From: Nitrosomonas sp.
Lineage (GTDB): Bacteria; Pseudomonadota; Gammaproteobacteria; Burkholderiales; Nitrosomonadaceae
Assembly: GCA_024281995.1 (NCBI GenBank)
Contig: JAMWZW010000001.1
Span: 744,001 to 808,000, forward strand
DNA length: 64,000 nt
Direction of reading: 5' to 3'
Shown: in pieces, positions 41,080 through 46,685 of the stretch
Layout of the letters: the number at the start of each line of letters is the position of its first letter
Numbering within the stretch: the stretch's first letter is position 1
Notes under the pieces: model-generated
What the model was told of the DNA's origin: nothing
The model's input: only the letters and a program-made list of their open reading frames with translations
The model's database searches: none
Program-made: the position numbers and the translations under genes

Positions 41080-41490
41080 ATGAATTCTATCAAACCTTAT
41101 TTAATTCGCTCTATTTATGATTGGTGTATTGATAACGACTTCACTCCTTTTCTTCTGGTAGAAAATTGTTCAGGACTTGACACACACGATAAATATATTA
41201 GGAATGGTGAGATAATTTTTAATATTGGTGCAAAAGCAGTTCTTGATCTTATGATTAATAATGATATTGTCTGCTTTGTGGCTCGTTTTAATGGAATTTC
41301 GAAAGAAATTAAAATTCCTATTAATATAATCAAAGGTATATTTGCAAAAGAAGTGAATCAAGGAATAGAGTTTACTAGGAATCGGATAAATATAAGTATT
41401 AATTTAAGTAGCAAAGACAACATGGTGGAATTTAATTCTCTCGCACACCAATCGAAAAATAATAAACCTAATTTGCAAATAATCAAATAA
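41080..41490 (+). CDS. sspB: ClpXP protease specificity-enhancing factor SspB
   Basis: This adaptor delivers ssrA-tagged and other proteins to ClpXP. The 136 residues have the N-terminal fold PYLIRSIYDWCIDNDFTPFL and the groove region ARFNGISKEIKIPI. A disordered linker ends in NKPNLQIIK, which matches the ClpX-binding tail at the C-terminus of SspB proteins. It starts 2 bases after sspA. The body is divergent and AT-rich, but tail and context support the call. Confidence 0.85.
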   Translation: MNSIKPYLIRSIYDWCIDNDFTPFLLVENCSGLDTHDKYIRNGEIIFNIGAKAVLDLMINNDIVCFVARFNGISKEIKIPINIIKGIFAKEVNQGIEFTRNRINISINLSSKDNMVEFNSLAHQSKNNKPNLQIIK

Positions 41491-41539
41491 CTCCAATTTT
41501 ATCTAAGAGAAAAAAGCTTGTCTCATTAAGGTAAAGAAA

Positions 41540-41615
41540 GCCGGCATAGCTCAGATGGTAGAGCAGCTGATTTGTAATCAGAAGGTCCCGAGTTCGATTC
41601 TTGGTGTCGGCACCA
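41540..41615 (+). tRNA. tRNA-Thr (anticodon TGT)
   Basis: This 76-base cloverleaf has acceptor stem GCCGGCA pairing with TGTCGGC, a D arm with AGCTCAGATGGTAGAGC, anticodon loop TTTGTAA (anticodon TGT), T loop GTTCGATTC and an encoded ACCA end (discriminator A plus CCA). It stands alone rather than in the usual tRNA cluster with tuf, at the left edge of the accessory island. Confidence 0.96.
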
Positions 41616-41813
41616 TAAAAACAATAACTTAAGTAATATTTTCCAGACTCCTGATTTCCAATTGTGTAGAAAAATTGTGCTATTAGGAGTTCATCTACTA
41701 CCATTGCATGTTTACTGAATTGCTAGGGAGCCAAATATAACAACTAACTGGATATTTTTTGCTAAAAAATCCAGAAACTGCTTTATGTGTTATGGCTCAA
41801 ATTAACCACCACG

Positions 41814-41820
41814 TTTTATA
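41814..41820. repeat. Target-site duplication, left copy (TTTTATA)
   Basis: The seven bases just before the left end of the IS481-type element are repeated exactly just after its right end. Confidence 0.85.
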
Positions 41821-41847
41821 TGTAGTAGTTCGACCCGATCTGACAGT
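41821..41847. repeat. Left terminal inverted repeat of the IS481-type element
   Basis: It matches the right end over about 27 bases, apart from one gap and three changes after the first eleven identical bases. Confidence 0.8.
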
Positions 41848-41884
41848 TACCCGATTTAACGATGCGGTTAGATCAAATTCAGTT

Positions 41885-42913
41885 ATAGAATGGATGGGGT
41901 AATTTTCTCGTCCGCCCCTTGCGTCAATTAAAGCGTTTGCATGGTGTACGCCCACAACACATTTTTCCTTGGTGAGTACATGTTGTTGGTAATCGCCATC
42001 CAGTCATCCAGATAGTGCTGTAACTCTTGATCAATTGGTAAATGTTACGCCTGAATGCTACCTGGTAGAATTCCTGCAAGATGGTTTTGTGGAAACGCTC
42101 GCAGATATCATTTGTTTGTGGATGATTGGCTTTCGTTCTGGAATGCTCGATGTTCATTGAGTGCCAGATAGAGCTGGTAATCGTGACTCTCCGGCTTACC
42201 GCAGTATTTGGTACCGCGATCGGTCAGGATACGGATGACTCCATACCTTGTTGACAAAGAACGGAAGCACCCGGTCATTAAGCAAATCAGCTGCTGTGCA
42301 TCGGCGTTTTGGTGGTATACAACTTCGCTGCAGCCCACTTGGAATCGTTGTCGACCAGATGTTTATTGATATGCGATTGGACCACGCCCCTTGATGGTGC
42401 CAACGTAAAATGTGTCTTGGCTGCCGGGATAGCCTGGATGAGCCGTCTGGATTTCGCCATGAGCAACATCGTCTTCTTGTTTCTTCTCAGGGCCTGCACT
42501 TGCGCTTCGGTCAGCACTGCTCCGGTCTCGGCGATATGTTCTCCAAGGCTGACAAACGCTTCTTGAACGACTCTCCAGATTCTGACGCAGCCCACACCGA
42601 ACAACGCCAGATAGAACGATGCGCGTTTGCGTCGTTCATTGGAACACGAACCTGACCAAACGCAGGTTGCTGCCCAGCGCAAAAGCTTTGATCGCTGCTC
42701 CGTCGCTTCTTCTACGCGATTCTTGATATGGGTTTACGCCGGTTCATCGAATCAGTGCCTCAACGCCTCCTGCCTCAACGGCAGCCTGATAGCGATAGAA
42801 AGTATCGCATGAAAAACCCGTACCTTTGCAGGCTCGGGATACTTTCCAAGCTCGGCTGCCAGATTAAGCAAACCAATCTTGTGTTTGATGATAGTTCGTT
42901 GAATACTACTCAT
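41885..42913 (-). pseudogene. IS481-family transposase, frameshifted
   Basis: Pieces of one transposase are spread over three frames. At the start (42913 leftwards) is SSIQRTIIKHKIGLLNLAAELGK. In the middle are LTEAQVQALRRNKK and SKWAAAKLYTTKTP; next is VIRILTDRGTKYCGK. The end has HPQTNDICERFHKTILQEFY and THQGKMCCGRTP. The catalytic DDE residues are still recognisable in DNDSKW, LTDRG and CERFHK. The helix-turn-helix region is the most damaged. At least four reading-frame breaks are needed to join them. Confidence 0.88.
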
Positions 42914-42999
42914 GGGATTACTCCTTTGCGCGCTTGCGCGCTTCGTTGATAAAGATTCACACCCTATCAAACCGGGTAATCCCACCTTTGGCAAGACCT

Positions 43000-43027
43000 A
43001 CTGTCAGATCAAGTCTGAACTACTACA
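43000..43027. repeat. Right terminal inverted repeat of the IS481-type element
   Basis: It is the partner of the left end at 41821. Its outermost bases supply the TAG stop of the nuclease gene at 43023-43025. Confidence 0.8.
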
Positions 43028-44444
43028 TTTTATACCCATGTAGCATCGATCTTGATTCATTGTTTTTTTCTCTCAATGAATATATTGTTAATATTATTTT
43101 TGCGTCTGCTTTAGCTTTTTCATCAGATTTTTTATATTTAGCGACTTCTTTGACCAGCGCATCAAAATCAGATTGATCTACCTCCACTTTGTATTCAGGC
43201 TGAGTATCAGATATAAATTCAATACCTAATTCCGCTGATAAGAAATCAATTAGTTCTTGTTTTGTCCGAGAACCATTTACAGTTATATAATTAGATAAAA
43301 AATCATCGTAAGTTTTAATTCTTTTCTCTTTTAAAGCATAGATGTAAGCTCTAACTAAAATTTGATCAACCAGATCAGTAGATCCATCAGAATAGAAATC
43401 AATATTTCTCGCATATTCCGTTTCATAAATATGTTTAGATCTTTTGATATGAAAATCCAGTTCATCTAAGATTGTTTCGTTAATCAAGAGCTTCACACCA
43501 CGAAGGTTTGCGGATTTTAACAAGCTCCAATATCGTTTATTTTGTGGATCTAAATAGATCTCAGACAGCGCAGGGATCAATATCGATGTACAAACAAATA
43601 TTCTCATGTCTCCAGCCATCGACAAAAAATAATTTACAATAGATGGCTCGCACTTCAGTAAAAACAACATTTGGTATGTTCTTGATAATGACCTTAGATA
43701 ACTCTTAGCCTCTATTGAACTTGAATAAAGTAAATCTCTAATTGACATTACTAGAGCAGTTTTAACTTTGTTCAAATTTTTATCAACAATATTTGAATTA
43801 TTTACAATATCTGAGACAGTGTCATGCAGATTATTCTCAAAGGTATCTTTACATCCTCCATTTAACAGAAACTCTGAAAATTCTAATCCCTGATTGTAAT
43901 AAATATTTTCAAGTGTACTCCCTAGTAATTCAGCAACATCTCGAATACTAACGCCTTCACCTTTGAGGTTATTCCTTATGATTTTTTCAGCTTCTTCAAT
44001 AAATGATTCGTGTTCTATTTTGTTTTTTGCATTGTTTGCAAGAATTTGGAGTCTCGTGTCATAAGGTAAACAATACTTATTTATATCTGTATGGTAATTA
44101 ATCTTCCTGCTAGGTTTCTTGCTTAAGACTTTTAGTCGTCTATTAATTTCTGACTGAATTCTCTCAATCTCGAATTTCAGTAAGTTTCTTACTTCATCCA
44201 AAATTTCTTCTGCGGAAAGGAATTTATCTACTCCAATTGCAGGATCTGTATCGCGTAATGAGTAAAGAATTAGACTGTCTATAAGCTTTTCATTAAGATT
44301 ATTAATCTCACTATCATTGCCAATCTGTTGCATCAAATATACATACAATCTTGGGTTGCTTACATAATCACTAACAACGAATCCTTCGCCAGGGTTTTGG
44401 TATTTTCTTAGATGCTGATCTATAAATGTTTTTACAACAGACAA
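43023..44444 (-). CDS. Large protein with PIN-like C-terminus; 3' end replaced by IS; likely second half of a nuclease gene
   Basis: The protein has 473 residues. The first 250 or so are helical and unrecognised. Residues about 280-390 look like a PIN nuclease fold: a strand into SILIPALSEIYL, then SANLRGVKLLINETILDELDFHI and a later acidic helix region (DLVDQILVRAYIYAL). The first PIN aspartate is not evident (VCTSILIP), so activity is uncertain. There is no ATG: the frame opens at a TTG without a ribosome site, overlapping the end of the upstream nuclease ORF in another frame. Both facts suggest one original gene with a frameshift. The last codon and the stop come from the IS481 end; without it the protein would end YKTWWLI. 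Confidence 0.6.
   Translation of the reverse strand: MSVVKTFIDQHLRKYQNPGEGFVVSDYVSNPRLYVYLMQQIGNDSEINNLNEKLIDSLILYSLRDTDPAIGVDKFLSAEEILDEVRNLLKFEIERIQSEINRRLKVLSKKPSRKINYHTDINKYCLPYDTRLQILANNAKNKIEHESFIEEAEKIIRNNLKGEGVSIRDVAELLGSTLENIYYNQGLEFSEFLLNGGCKDTFENNLHDTVSDIVNNSNIVDKNLNKVKTALVMSIRDLLYSSSIEAKSYLRSLSRTYQMLFLLKCEPSIVNYFLSMAGDMRIFVCTSILIPALSEIYLDPQNKRYWSLLKSANLRGVKLLINETILDELDFHIKRSKHIYETEYARNIDFYSDGSTDLVDQILVRAYIYALKEKRIKTYDDFLSNYITVNGSRTKQELIDFLSAELGIEFISDTQPEYKVEVDQSDFDALVKEVAKYKKSDEKAKADAKIILTIYSLREKNNESRSMLHGYKM
43028..43034. repeat. Target-site duplication, right copy (TTTTATA)
   Basis: An exact copy of 41814-41820. Here it is also codons of the interrupted gene (minus-strand TAT AAA A). 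Confidence 0.85.
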
Positions 44445-44863
44445 GTCGCTTGATTATGGTTTGTATTTTGTGAAAGCCATTTTCCATCATATATTCTTAA
44501 ATTTATCCCATCGTTATTTTGATAATCATCTATTAATAAATCTTTATTTTTTACCTCAATATTTGTTACATAATAGAAAGTTGTATATTCGATCTGATTG
44601 TCATTCAACTTGTCGACAGTATCTTTAATTTTAGTTGATGGCTTTTTATCAATGCTAATTTGAAAAATACTTTTTTTTGTTGAGTCAATTTCGGATGCAT
44701 ATTGCAATCCATCTATTCCTCTGTCTTTTAGACCTCCACTTGAAATAAATTTGTAGCCAAGCCTGGCTGCTAGAAATTCTTGTGCGAATCTTTCAAACAA
44801 AAATCCATCTTCAATTAAATGCAAAACATCTTGAACATCAGACGGATCTAATAGATCATCCAT
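44432..44863 (-). CDS. PD-(D/E)XK (Mrr-like) nuclease module
   Basis: The 143 residues fit the restriction-endonuclease-like fold: helix FERFAQEFLAARLGY with a conserved Glu, then SSGGLKDRGIDGL with the catalytic Asp. The strand SIFQISIDKKPSTKIKDTV supplies the Q-x-K-type residues. It ends WLSQNTNHNQATCLL and overlaps the next frame by 13 bases. I infer it was the N-terminal domain of a protein of about 610 residues that continued into the following frame. The ATG at 44863 has GAGG about 11 bases upstream. It lies in an accessory island and would fit a DNA-targeting defence protein. Confidence 0.6.
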   Translation of the reverse strand: MDDLLDPSDVQDVLHLIEDGFLFERFAQEFLAARLGYKFISSGGLKDRGIDGLQYASEIDSTKKSIFQISIDKKPSTKIKDTVDKLNDNQIEYTTFYYVTNIEVKNKDLLIDDYQNNDGINLRIYDGKWLSQNTNHNQATCLL

Positions 44864-45076
44864 TATTAAAACATCCTCAATGAAGTATAACGTTTGGGCT
44901 CAAGCATAGGAAAAAGGCACAGCAATTCGGAATTCCTCGTAAGACAGGTTGTATGCCTTCACTTTAAATGCATATTAAGATGATACGGTAGCATAATCAT
45001 CAGTACTTGATACTAACTAATCGATTGATTGTATCTTGGAATTATCACTAGTATTCAATTGTGTTTTTATAGCTCA
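44864..45076. other. Spacer between the nuclease gene and the transposon debris
   Basis: AT-rich sequence with no frame I can support. It must hold the promoter of the nuclease gene if the gene is still expressed. Confidence 0.4.
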
Positions 45077-45250
45077 TTAGCATTTCTCCGTACAGTTATT
45101 AACAGAACTCGAACTCGAACTCTCAATAATGGTTTTGCGAGAAAATCCGCAACACTCCGCTAATCGCTGAACACTTGGGTAGCATTGTCTTTGTTCGTTG
45201 GTGAAAGAACATAGCCACATAAACTGTAGATAAAATGCACGACAAAATTT
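45077..45250 (-). pseudogene. Fragment of a helix-turn-helix protein
   Basis: The minus-strand frame reads FMWLCSFTNEQRQCYPSVQR and then LAECCGFSRKTIIE, the start of a winged helix-turn-helix of the HTH_36 kind found in plasmid and phage replication or regulatory proteins. After that the sequence turns into a Ser run from a GAACTC repeat and stops. Upstream it is fused to unrelated sequence near the IS5 fragment. It is a remnant, not a working gene. Confidence 0.45.
45105..45122. repeat. Three tandem copies of GAACTC
   Basis: A perfect hexamer repeat inside the helix-turn-helix remnant. It preserves the frame, and the remnant ends shortly after it. Confidence 0.7.
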
Positions 45251-45279
45251 TAAATATTCAAGAATACCCACCCCGACAC

Positions 45280-45573
45280 CACATTCTCATCGGATAAATC
45301 AAACGCCTGCTGTAAATATAACAAGCCAGCTATCAAATACGGCGAAGTAGCTCTGCGACCGCGCTCAATCTTGAAGTGACTGATGCACACCGCATCAATG
45401 CGATCCCATTCGATCAAGTCGGCCAGACGTACCAGCAGGTGCTTCAAATTGATCTGCTCTCGCAGCGGCTGACGAAACAGTTCAACACAAGGAGAACGAA
45501 TCGGCTTGGGACCGATAGAAATACCAGAAAAATTTTGCAGGAAAAGACCCTGTATTATCTCAGATACTGCCAA
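45280..45573 (-). pseudogene. IS5-family transposase, 5' fragment
   Basis: About 95 codons show the N-terminal part of an IS5-type transposase: LFRQPLREQINLKHLLVRLADLIEWD and then RRATSPYLIAGLLYLQQAFDLSDENVVSGW. It breaks off where the conserved ENPYWQ region should follow. The DDE catalytic domain is missing entirely. Confidence 0.75.
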
Positions 45574-45614
45574 TCAGAACTAATATAATTACTCCAGGAA
45601 CAGCATGAATAAAG

Positions 45615-45890
45615 AACTTGGAGGATTATTCAGGCCCGACTATCTACTTCACTCATCCTTACCATTCATGGGAGTGCGGCTTGAACGAGAACAGCAATGA
45701 CCTATTGCGACAGTATTTTCCCAAGGCAATGGAATTGGTGGATGTTACTCAAGAACAAGTGCAATGGGCGATGGATAGACTCAATCATCGGCCACGCAAA
45801 GTACTGAGTTTCAAAACCCCGTTTGAGGTATTCTTCAGGAAAACGGTGCACTACACCAATTCACCGTTAGGTGTTGCACTTCGAAGTTGA
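45615..45890 (+). pseudogene. IS30-family transposase, 3' fragment
   Basis: The frame encodes the C-terminal part of an IS30 transposase: TIYFTHPYHSWECGLNENSN, LLRQYFPKAMEL, WAMDRLNHRPRKVLSFKTP and VALRS at the end. The catalytic Glu region (ERGTNEN in working enzymes) is ECGLNEN here. The N-terminal two thirds are missing. It lies head to head with the IS5 fragment, so two truncated elements were joined. Confidence 0.78.
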
Positions 45891-46010
45891 ATCTGCGGTG
45901 TATAAAACGGATTTATTCAGACTCGACTATTGAAGCATTGTTGAAGGAATGTGAGTAGGTGGTGGAACTGGAGGGATACCATATTTCTGGTTTTATATAC
46001 AATCATTCAT

Positions 46011-46685
46011 TCAGATTAAATTGTGCTCAGAAAAGGACATGGCTGTACCGTTGCCGATAATAAAATGGTCGAGTACCTTGATATCGATTAGAGCTAATGC
46101 TTGTTTTAAGGATTGAGTCAATATTTTATCAGCATGGCTTGGTATTGCGACACCCGAAGGATGGTTATGAGCAAAAATCATTGCTGCAGCATTATGATAC
46201 AAAGCACGTTTGATTACTTCTCGAGGGTAAACGCTGGTTTGTGTCAATGTGCCACTGAATAACTCTTCCATTGCAATAGTATGGTTTTTAGCATCAAGAA
46301 AAATGCCTATAAATACTTCATTCTCTTTGTTTGCCAAGCTCAGACGTAGAAAATTCCGAGCAAGTTGAGGGGAATTCATTGCATCTCCATGTTTTAGGTC
46401 TTCTCCTAAGGTACGGCGAGCCATTTCTAGTACTGCTTGTAGTTGGGTATATTTAGCAATGCCCAGCCCAGGTATTTTGCAAAAACTGGCTTGACTGGCT
46501 GCTAAGATATTGGTTAAGCTGCCAAAATGCAAGAGTAATTCCCTCGCAAGATCAACAGCGCTTTTCCCTGTAACACCTGTGCGTAGAAATATTGCTAACA
46601 GTTCAGTGTCTGAAAGAGCAGTAGGACCTTTCTGAAGCAATTTTTCGCGCGGCCTGTCAGAAGGTGGCCAGTTTGAAATTGCCAT
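46011..46685 (-). CDS. radC: RadC/JAB-domain protein
   Basis: The 224 residues are the family's usual length. An N-terminal helix-hairpin-helix part ([18 protein letters not shown]) is followed by an MPN+/JAMM domain with the zinc motif [15 protein letters not shown]. The frame extends upstream to 46847, but the ATG at 46685 gives the normal start [17 protein letters not shown]. The old link of RadC to DNA repair is doubtful. It is divergent from coaBC, as in many proteobacteria. Confidence 0.92.

What the first reader, a model, noticed from the sequence alone, without database searches (positions are those of the whole stretch)
43023..44863. Candidate two-nuclease gene: PD-(D/E)XK module followed by a long protein with a PIN-like end
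The minus strand encodes an Mrr-like nuclease module (143 residues) and, overlapping in another frame, a 473-residue protein with a PIN-like C-terminus. The second frame has no ATG and no ribosome site, and its stop codon just upstream (TAA) leaves room only for a TTG start. The simplest reading is one ancestral gene of about 610 residues carrying two different nuclease folds, now split by a frameshift, or expressed by programmed frameshifting. It sits in an island beside a tRNA with IS debris, the kind of place where phage-defence genes live. I do not know a named system with this layout.
Basis: partly seen in the sequence, partly recalled or inferred. Interest (0 to 1): 0.72.

Follow-up and report, generated by a model that had tools for sequence, protein, structure and literature searches.

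The report
Broken copy of two-nuclease-fold gene
This is the wreck of one gene, cut by a frameshift and by a jumping element, from a rare and apparently undescribed bacterial protein family that joins two nuclease-like folds and may have served in defence against invading DNA.

Summary
A deltaproteobacterial relative (L002, 51% identical) has both parts in one frame and aligns to the window in three collinear pieces. Single-frame relatives of 723-743 aa occur on enterobacterial plasmids and in four other genomes. The copy here is dead: besides the frame change, an IS481 element (41821-43027, 7-bp target duplication) cuts the 3' end and supplies the stop of the 473-aa frame; the gene resumes beyond it with a stop codon. 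Programmed frameshifting is not supported. Profiles support an Mrr-type N-domain (Prob 95.9) and the first half of a PIN domain (Prob 84.3); both AlphaFold models failed. The N-domain lacks the catalytic lysine in 10 of 10 copies. The PIN acidic set is complete in clade A (4 of 4) but in none of 6 in the window's clade B. So a degenerate-nuclease sensor plus RNase-type effector is likelier than two nucleases. Neighbours (restriction-modification, HNH, TrlF, SIR2) suggest defence, untested. No Pfam, NCBIfam or PADLOC model named the members scanned.

The parts
44432..44863 (-). N-terminal piece (143-aa frame): Mrr/REase-fold domain with KDRGIDG and FQIS motifs; ends at a TAA after the frame change
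   Evidence: 52% identical to L002 residues 12-111; hhalign of the family N-domain Prob 95.9 vs Mrr_cat set
43023..44444 (-). Main piece (473-aa TTG frame): helical middle part and first part of the PIN-like domain; its stop codon lies in the IS end
   Evidence: L002 residues 113-578 at 44441-43029, 50.5% identical
44432..44456 (-). 25-nt interval between the two stop codons in which the reading frame changes; no slippery heptamer
41821..43027 (.). IS481-family element interrupting the gene; its own transposase frame is broken in this copy
   Evidence: 13 further copies of about 1.2 kb at 92-93%; terminal inverted repeats; family taken from the 362-aa transposase of sister copy L017: IS481 equivalog, 284.4 bits, cut-off 224
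41814..41820 (.). Left copy of the 7-bp target-site duplication TTTTATA
   Evidence: printed sequence
43028..43034 (.). Right copy of the 7-bp target-site duplication TTTTATA
   Evidence: printed sequence
41734..41820 (-). Remnant of the same gene beyond the IS (YKTWWL...THKAV...KKYPVSCY), with one in-frame stop near the place of the last PIN aspartate; rest of the 3' end not found
   Evidence: tblastn piece of L002 residues 534-606 at 41937-41734, E 1.4e-7 in the 5.5 kb searched (composition correction off); its part above 41820 lies in the IS, the part matching residues 577-606 lies below it
41540..41615 (+). tRNA-Thr(tgt) bordering the island
   Evidence: no second copy of its 3' end in the window at up to 3 mismatches

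Best explanation
The two frames are pieces of one dead gene. In its intact form (723-743 aa, one frame) the protein has an N-terminal Mrr/REase-fold domain, a helical, probably winged-helix middle, and a C-terminal PIN-like domain. Shown: one gene, broken here by a frame change, an IS481 insertion with target duplication, a stop codon and a missing 3' end. Shown at profile level: the Mrr fold of the N-domain and the D1-to-E half of the PIN domain. Inferred: the intact protein is a single-gene defence factor. Its REase-fold domain, which lacks the catalytic lysine, would bind invader nucleic acid or another phage signal rather than cut it. The C-terminal PIN domain would then cut RNA in clade A; in the window's clade B its activity is doubtful. 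My likelihoods: dead gene of this family 0.95; defence role of the family 0.55; sensor-plus-PIN-effector mechanism 0.4.
For: L002 protein aligns to the window in three collinear minus-strand pieces on the two sides of the frame change and the IS. Uninterrupted single-frame relatives: plasmid P0001 735 aa, G141 736 aa, G622 723 aa, G1062 and G1086 738 and 743 aa. IS ends, inverted repeats, 7-bp duplication and 13 sister copies. hhalign: N-domain vs Mrr_cat set Prob 95.9, PIN region vs PIN_12 set Prob 84.3; the six cross and reversed controls give at most 1.6, and 0 of 100 column shuffles reach either score. Q-x-[ST] instead of [EQ]-x-K in 10 of 10 family copies, against [EQ]-x-K at the motif in 19 of 22 Mrr references by eye. 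Neighbours: BsuBI/PstI-type R-M, HNH and integrase (G1062), Eco57I-type methylase plus XhoI (G1086), Mrr, HNH and SocA/MqsA-like genes (L002); TrlF and a SIR2 and ATPase pair; methyltransferase and helicase. Inactive REase domains are described as sensors in immunity (PMC12839542, passages).
Against: No structure: both AlphaFold models failed (mean pLDDT 43 and 37). The D3/D4 half of the PIN domain is not supported on its own (Prob 0.3, 2 of 100 shuffles as high). The missing lysine may be replaced by the lysine of a K-I pair shortly downstream (present in nine of ten copies), so the N-domain could still cut. Four clade B copies have an aspartate two residues after the D1 place, which might stand in for it. 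Two full-length copies (G141, G622) lie among sugar/glycan-type genes (recalled) with no defence neighbour that I recognised. Neighbourhood enrichment was not tested against a control. The frame change alone could be an assembly error. No activity is known to me for any member.
Confidence: 0.6

Rival explanations
1. Programmed -1 frameshifting joins the two frames into one working protein.
For: The two frames overlap by 25 nt and the second has only a TTG start.
Against: No zero-frame X XXY YYZ heptamer in the overlap. The 7 relatives that read across the junction do so in one frame. The gene is truncated by an IS and carries a stop in the remnant beyond it.
Confidence: 0.02
2. The intact family is a true two-nuclease restriction factor: the Mrr-like domain cuts DNA and the PIN domain cuts RNA.
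For: Both domains match nuclease profiles. Clade A keeps D1, E, D3 and D4 of the PIN motif in 4 of 4 copies. The N-domain keeps the D and Q of the Mrr motif, and a K-I pair follows shortly downstream in nine of ten copies. Four loci have R-M-type neighbours, two of them beside broken copies.
Against: The lysine of [EQ]-x-K is S or T in 10 of 10 copies. D1 of the PIN is C or G in 6 of 6 clade B copies.
Confidence: 0.22
3. The family is a toxin-like or stabilising gene of plasmids and islands without a role against phages.
For: Patchy, on plasmids and beside tRNAs in some genomes. Several copies are broken. PIN domains are best characterised in VapC toxins, as PMC13092281 says (passages).
Against: No partner gene shared across the loci was noticed; neighbours include R-M and other defence-type genes. 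A 146-aa gene does precede the plasmid copies and was not tested as a partner.
Confidence: 0.15
4. The frame change is a sequencing or assembly error and only the IS broke the gene.
For: One short frame change, and only one assembly is available here.
Against: No homopolymer of 4 or more lies inside the overlap; a run of five A begins in the last two bases of the stop of frame 1. The stop and missing 3' end beyond the IS are independent damage.
Confidence: 0.12
5. Two separate, independently expressed genes.
For: Two frames are open today. One related locus, G1031, also has the two parts in different overlapping frames.
Against: No ATG or ribosome site for the second; fused relatives. G1031 lacks about 88 residues between its two parts, so it looks like a deletion.
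Confidence: 0.02

Closest known systems
Mrr-type restriction endonuclease domain (Pfam PF04471 Mrr_cat)
   Same: Profile match over 110 columns with an F-E helix, D-x-G-x-D and Q; a haloarchaeal relative of the N-domain passes the Pfam cut-off (22.7 bits, cut-off 21)
   Different: Lysine of [EQ]-x-K replaced by S/T in 10 of 10 copies; the window piece alone does not reach the Pfam cut-off (E 0.16)
PIN domain, PIN_12 type (Pfam PF16289)
   Same: D1-to-E half matches with Prob 84.3; D1, E, D3 and D4 present in clade A
   Different: Long stretch between E and D3; second half not supported on its own; D1 is C in the window and L002 and G in the 4 other clade B copies
Inactive REase (iREase) sensor domains of immune proteins (PMC12839542, PMC10853773; passages seen)
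   Same: REase fold with a degenerate catalytic motif joined to other parts of an immune protein
   Different: There joined to helicases or AAA+ ATPases; here to a PIN-like domain, with no NTPase among the Pfam hits of the members scanned
DS-3 single-protein PIN defence system (PMC13092281, passages seen)
   Same: One protein with a PIN RNase domain and no antitoxin
   Different: Its PIN is described as split between the N- and C-terminus; no Mrr domain is mentioned in the passages; its sequence was not compared
Beta-propeller protein with N-terminal Mrr nuclease (PMC9519451, passage seen)
   Same: Defence protein with an N-terminal Mrr-family domain
   Different: Beta-propeller instead of a PIN domain

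Membership tests
Mrr_cat restriction endonuclease | Homology to the Mrr_cat profile | tested here: met
   hhalign Prob 95.9, 0 of 100 column shuffles as high; hmmscan of single sequences subthreshold for the window (E 0.16) and G622 (E 0.068)
Mrr_cat restriction endonuclease | Catalytic D ... [EQ]-x-K | tested here: not met
   D and Q kept, K replaced by S/T in 10 of 10
PIN domain | PIN fold by profile | tested here: inconclusive
   First half Prob 84.3; second half Prob 0.3; no usable structure; hmmscan of G141 protein vs PIN_12 E 0.67
PIN domain | Acidic set D1, E, D3, D4 | tested here: not met
   Window: D1 is C, E and D3 kept, a stop near the place of D4 beyond the IS. Clade A 4 of 4 complete; clade B 0 of 6
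Inactive REase (iREase) sensor | REase fold with degenerate catalytic motif | tested here: met
   whether it senses anything was not tested
IS481 insertion | Transposase family, terminal inverted repeats, target duplication, sister copies | tested here: met
   (family from sister copy L017)
Programmed -1 frameshift gene | Slippery heptamer at the overlap, conserved in relatives | tested here: not met
Known defence system (PADLOC-DB 2.0.0) | Match to a model | tested here: not met
   No hit for P0001 or P0003 at E up to 1; only weak hits (best E 0.0064, HEPN_IX) for the window pieces; other members not scanned
Anti-phage defence gene | Protects a host against phage | not testable with these tools
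   Neighbour genes only

The most novel reading that the evidence does not exclude
A new single-protein immunity family in which a degenerate restriction-enzyme fold works as the invader sensor and a C-terminal PIN-like domain as the RNA-cutting effector. In clade B, the window's own, both nuclease folds have lost a textbook catalytic residue and yet full-length frames persist, so clade B may have turned into a binding-only or decoy device.
Probability: 0.3. Interest if true: 0.6.

Novelty: new variant of a known kind. Interest (0 to 1): 0.36.

Why it matters
The copy here cannot make the full protein, so nothing about this genome's biology hangs on it. It points to an unnamed, patchy family with intact copies on enterobacterial plasmids that can be tested at once in laboratory E. 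coli. If the intact protein defends, it would add a compact one-gene layout, dead REase fold plus PIN-like domain, to the known list of sensor-effector fusions.

Tried and rejected
Programmed frameshifting: rejected. Two separate genes: rejected. Structure: two AlphaFold jobs with 3 and 2 rows gave mean pLDDT 43.3 and 37.4, so no fold search was run. Library searches: Pfam on the window pieces, P0001, P0003, P0006 and P0010, NCBIfam on the window pieces, P0001, P0006 and P0010: no hit over a curated cut-off. PADLOC on the window pieces, P0001 and P0003 and PHROGs on P0001, P0006, P0010, P0003 and the 143-aa piece have no cut-off; their best hits were E 0.0064 and 0.028. G1062, G1086, G1305, G1031 and G956 were not scanned. 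A profile search of PDB sequences gave 0 hits at E up to 1. Viral contigs: 5 scans, no relative confirmed. Phages: no match for P0001 or P0003. Attachment-site search: no second copy of the tRNA 3' end in the window, and no direct repeat of 16 nt or more in 41480-46100. D3/D4 half of the PIN against PIN_12: not significant.

Rows dropped before counts: the N-domain comparison left out L002 (5' end missing) and G1031 and added two haloarchaeal domains, 10 rows in all; the motif count of 10 copies leaves out the haloarchaeal pair (which have H-x-[ST]) and adds L002 and G1031 by eye. The Mrr set used 22 of the 30 loci that one search returned; the PIN_12 set used 16 of the 19 matches that one search listed (three short ones under the cut-off left out). 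In the broken-against-intact count the Klebsiella quasipneumoniae copy, 99% identical to the intact plasmid lineage, is counted apart from it.

Full report
Observation. The 143-aa frame starts at an ATG at 44863 and ends at 44432. The 473-aa frame can start only at the TTG at 44444 (among ATG, GTG and TTG), because its frame has a TAA 12 nt upstream. Both are on the minus strand; the overlap between the two stops is 25 nt. The own genome has one copy, and 0 of 100 relatives searched have one.

One gene. A scan of genome contigs gave one relative, locus L002, from a MAG titled Deltaproteobacteria bacterium. There the homologues of both window frames lie in a single frame, 695 codons from stop to stop. 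That copy lacks its own 5' end, and a gene that I recognise as a transposase (recalled) lies just upstream. Its protein aligns to the window in three collinear pieces on the minus strand: residues 12-111 at 44746-44444 (52%), residues 113-578 at 44441-43029 (51%), and a third piece on the far side of an insertion. The third piece is reported as residues 534-606 at 41937-41734 (E 1.4e-7, composition correction off). Its upper part lies in the IS; the real match is residues 577-606, below 41820. The first two pieces meet at the frame change.

The insertion. DNA of 41650-43080 matches 13 further places in the own genome over about 1.2 kb at 92-93%. The shared stretch is 41821-43027, with terminal inverted repeats and TTTTATA on both sides (41814-41820 and 43028-43034). 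The transposase of the sister copy L017 (362 aa) scores 284.4 bits against the IS481 equivalog, cut-off 224; the transposase frame of the window copy is broken. The stop codon of the 473-aa frame (43025-43023) lies in the IS end. The gene resumes beyond the IS, carries an in-frame stop near the place of the last PIN aspartate of L002, and is lost before the tRNA-Thr at 41540-41615. So this copy has a frame change, an insertion, a stop and a missing 3' end, and cannot make the full protein.

Not programmed frameshifting. The overlap holds no X XXY YYZ heptamer in the zero frame. Seven loci read across the domain junction in one frame: the plasmid lineage, G141, G622, G1062, G1086, L002 and the N-terminal piece of G1305. 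Two others do not cover it. G1031 has its two parts in different, overlapping frames but lacks about 88 residues between them, so it looks like a deletion. G956 is split over two contig ends. G1031 needs telling: it is the only other place found where the two parts lie in different frames.

The family. Single-frame full-length members: plasmids of Klebsiella, Escherichia and Citrobacter (735 aa; 8 of 10 plasmid records with a match cover at least 80% of the query; 5 of 5426 complete E. coli genomes, in each on a plasmid), G141, G622, G1062 and G1086. Start codons were set mechanically. Broken or partial members: the window; L002 (5' end missing); G1305 (one in-frame TGA); G1031; a Klebsiella quasipneumoniae plasmid copy that keeps residues 467-735 with one stop, behind a Tn3-family transposase gene; a Gordonia plasmid remnant with one stop. 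Undetermined: G956 and G851, at contig ends. Five intact against six broken is a small sample. Genomes with any match: 1 of 101, 2 of 398, 1 of 48, 3 of 369 (one of them N-domain only), 5 of 210 (one N-domain only), 9 of 399 (five N-domain only). The own genome is in four of these counts, and the draws overlap, so they must not be added. No relative was confirmed in five scans of viral contigs or found in phage records.

Domains. No Pfam cut-off is reached by the window pieces, P0001, P0003, P0006 or P0010, and no NCBIfam cut-off by the window pieces, P0001, P0006 or P0010. For the window's 143-aa piece the best Pfam hits are SMEK_N (E 3.5e-4, 20.9 bits, cut-off 27) and Mrr_cat (E 0.16). I built reference sets from other genomes with Mrr_cat (22 of 30 loci) and PIN_12 (16 of 19 matches). 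hhalign of the family N-domain (10 rows, two of them haloarchaeal) against the Mrr set gives Prob 95.9 over 110 columns. The family PIN region (10 rows) against the PIN_12 set gives Prob 84.3 over 65 columns, aligning D1 and E. The six cross and reversed controls give at most 1.6, and 0 of 100 column shuffles reach either score. The second half of the PIN region, with D3 and D4, gives Prob 0.3, and 2 of 100 shuffles are as high, so those two positions are assigned by motif only. A winged-helix middle is a guess from one weak Pfam hit (Linker_histone, E 0.032). AlphaFold gave no usable model.

Catalytic residues. In the N-domain the D and Q of the Mrr motif are kept and the K is S or T in 10 of 10 copies. 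Among the 22 Mrr references I count 19 with [EQ]-x-K at the motif (by eye). A K-I pair follows in nine copies (then K or R in eight of them, S in G1086; absent in G1031, where the frame breaks) and its lysine could substitute. In the PIN region E is kept in 10 of 10. D1 is D in 4 (P0001, G141, G1305, G956), C in 2 (window, L002) and G in 4 (G622, G1031, G1062, G1086), the last four with an aspartate two residues later. D3 is D in 8 of 10. D4 is D in 5 of the 9 that reach it. The tree of 10 rows separates the four with complete sets (clade A) from the six others (clade B) with 100/100 support; the window pairs with L002 (100/99).

Surroundings. G1062: BsuBI/PstI restriction endonuclease, Eco57I-type methylase, HNH and integrase, tRNA-Arg. 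G1086: Eco57I-type methylase and XhoI. L002: Mrr with zinc ribbon, HNH, SocA/MqsA-like antitoxin. Plasmids: TrlF-family ATPase, and in one a SIR2 and ATPase pair. K. quasipneumoniae: DNA methyltransferase and helicase. Gordonia: an EcoRI-family methyltransferase. G1305: two tRNA-Lys genes. G141 and G622: genes that I recognise as sugar or glycan genes (recalled). This leans towards defence, but no control neighbourhoods were counted.

How it most likely works. Dead here. In intact relatives I favour an REase-fold domain that senses and a PIN-like domain that acts, in one protein. Papers describe inactive REase domains as nucleotide or nucleic-acid sensors in immune systems (PMC12839542, passages), an iREase inside an AAA+ ATPase system (PMC10853773, passage), and a one-protein PIN defence system, DS-3 (PMC13092281, passages). 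The rival, an active DNase plus RNase, is not excluded.

In print. Searches of the held open-access library listed no paper that I saw to describe an Mrr-PIN fusion. I saw listings, and passages of seven papers only. This is weak evidence of absence.

Noticed in passing
window 41821-43027: IS481-family element with 13 further near-full copies in the genome at 92-93%; the transposase frame of the window copy is broken while that of the sister copy L017 is open (362 aa).
   Followed up: yes
window 45077-45890: Fragments that look like at least two other transposase genes upstream of the nuclease gene (recalled, not searched by family); parts of 44440-46020 match 7 other places in the genome.
   Followed up: partly
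L107 (G1031): A broken family member with N-domain cut short lies between genes that I recognise as rpoB and rpoC (recalled), an unusual place for an insertion.
   Followed up: no
G668, G915, G1131, G1148, G1158 (L035, L041, L049, L050, L051): The N-domain alone is matched in open frames of 1067-1159 codons, with no match to the rest of the family profile, so the N-domain seems to be a mobile module joined to other parts.
   Followed up: partly
L010:5001-6131 and L011:5001-6116 (haloarchaeal plasmids): Distant N-domain relatives of 376 and 371 aa with H-x-[ST] in place of Q-x-[ST]; one sits beside a SIR2 gene, the other about 4 kb from a HEPN gene.
   Followed up: partly
L004:6912-7352: A 146-aa unnamed gene lies just upstream of the intact plasmid gene in 4 of 4 plasmid regions read that hold the intact gene (L003, L004, L012, L013); no Pfam hit at E up to 1. 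Possible partner.
   Followed up: no
family as a whole: Clade B keeps long open frames although both folds lack a standard catalytic residue; a conserved double pseudo-nuclease would be odd.
   Followed up: partly
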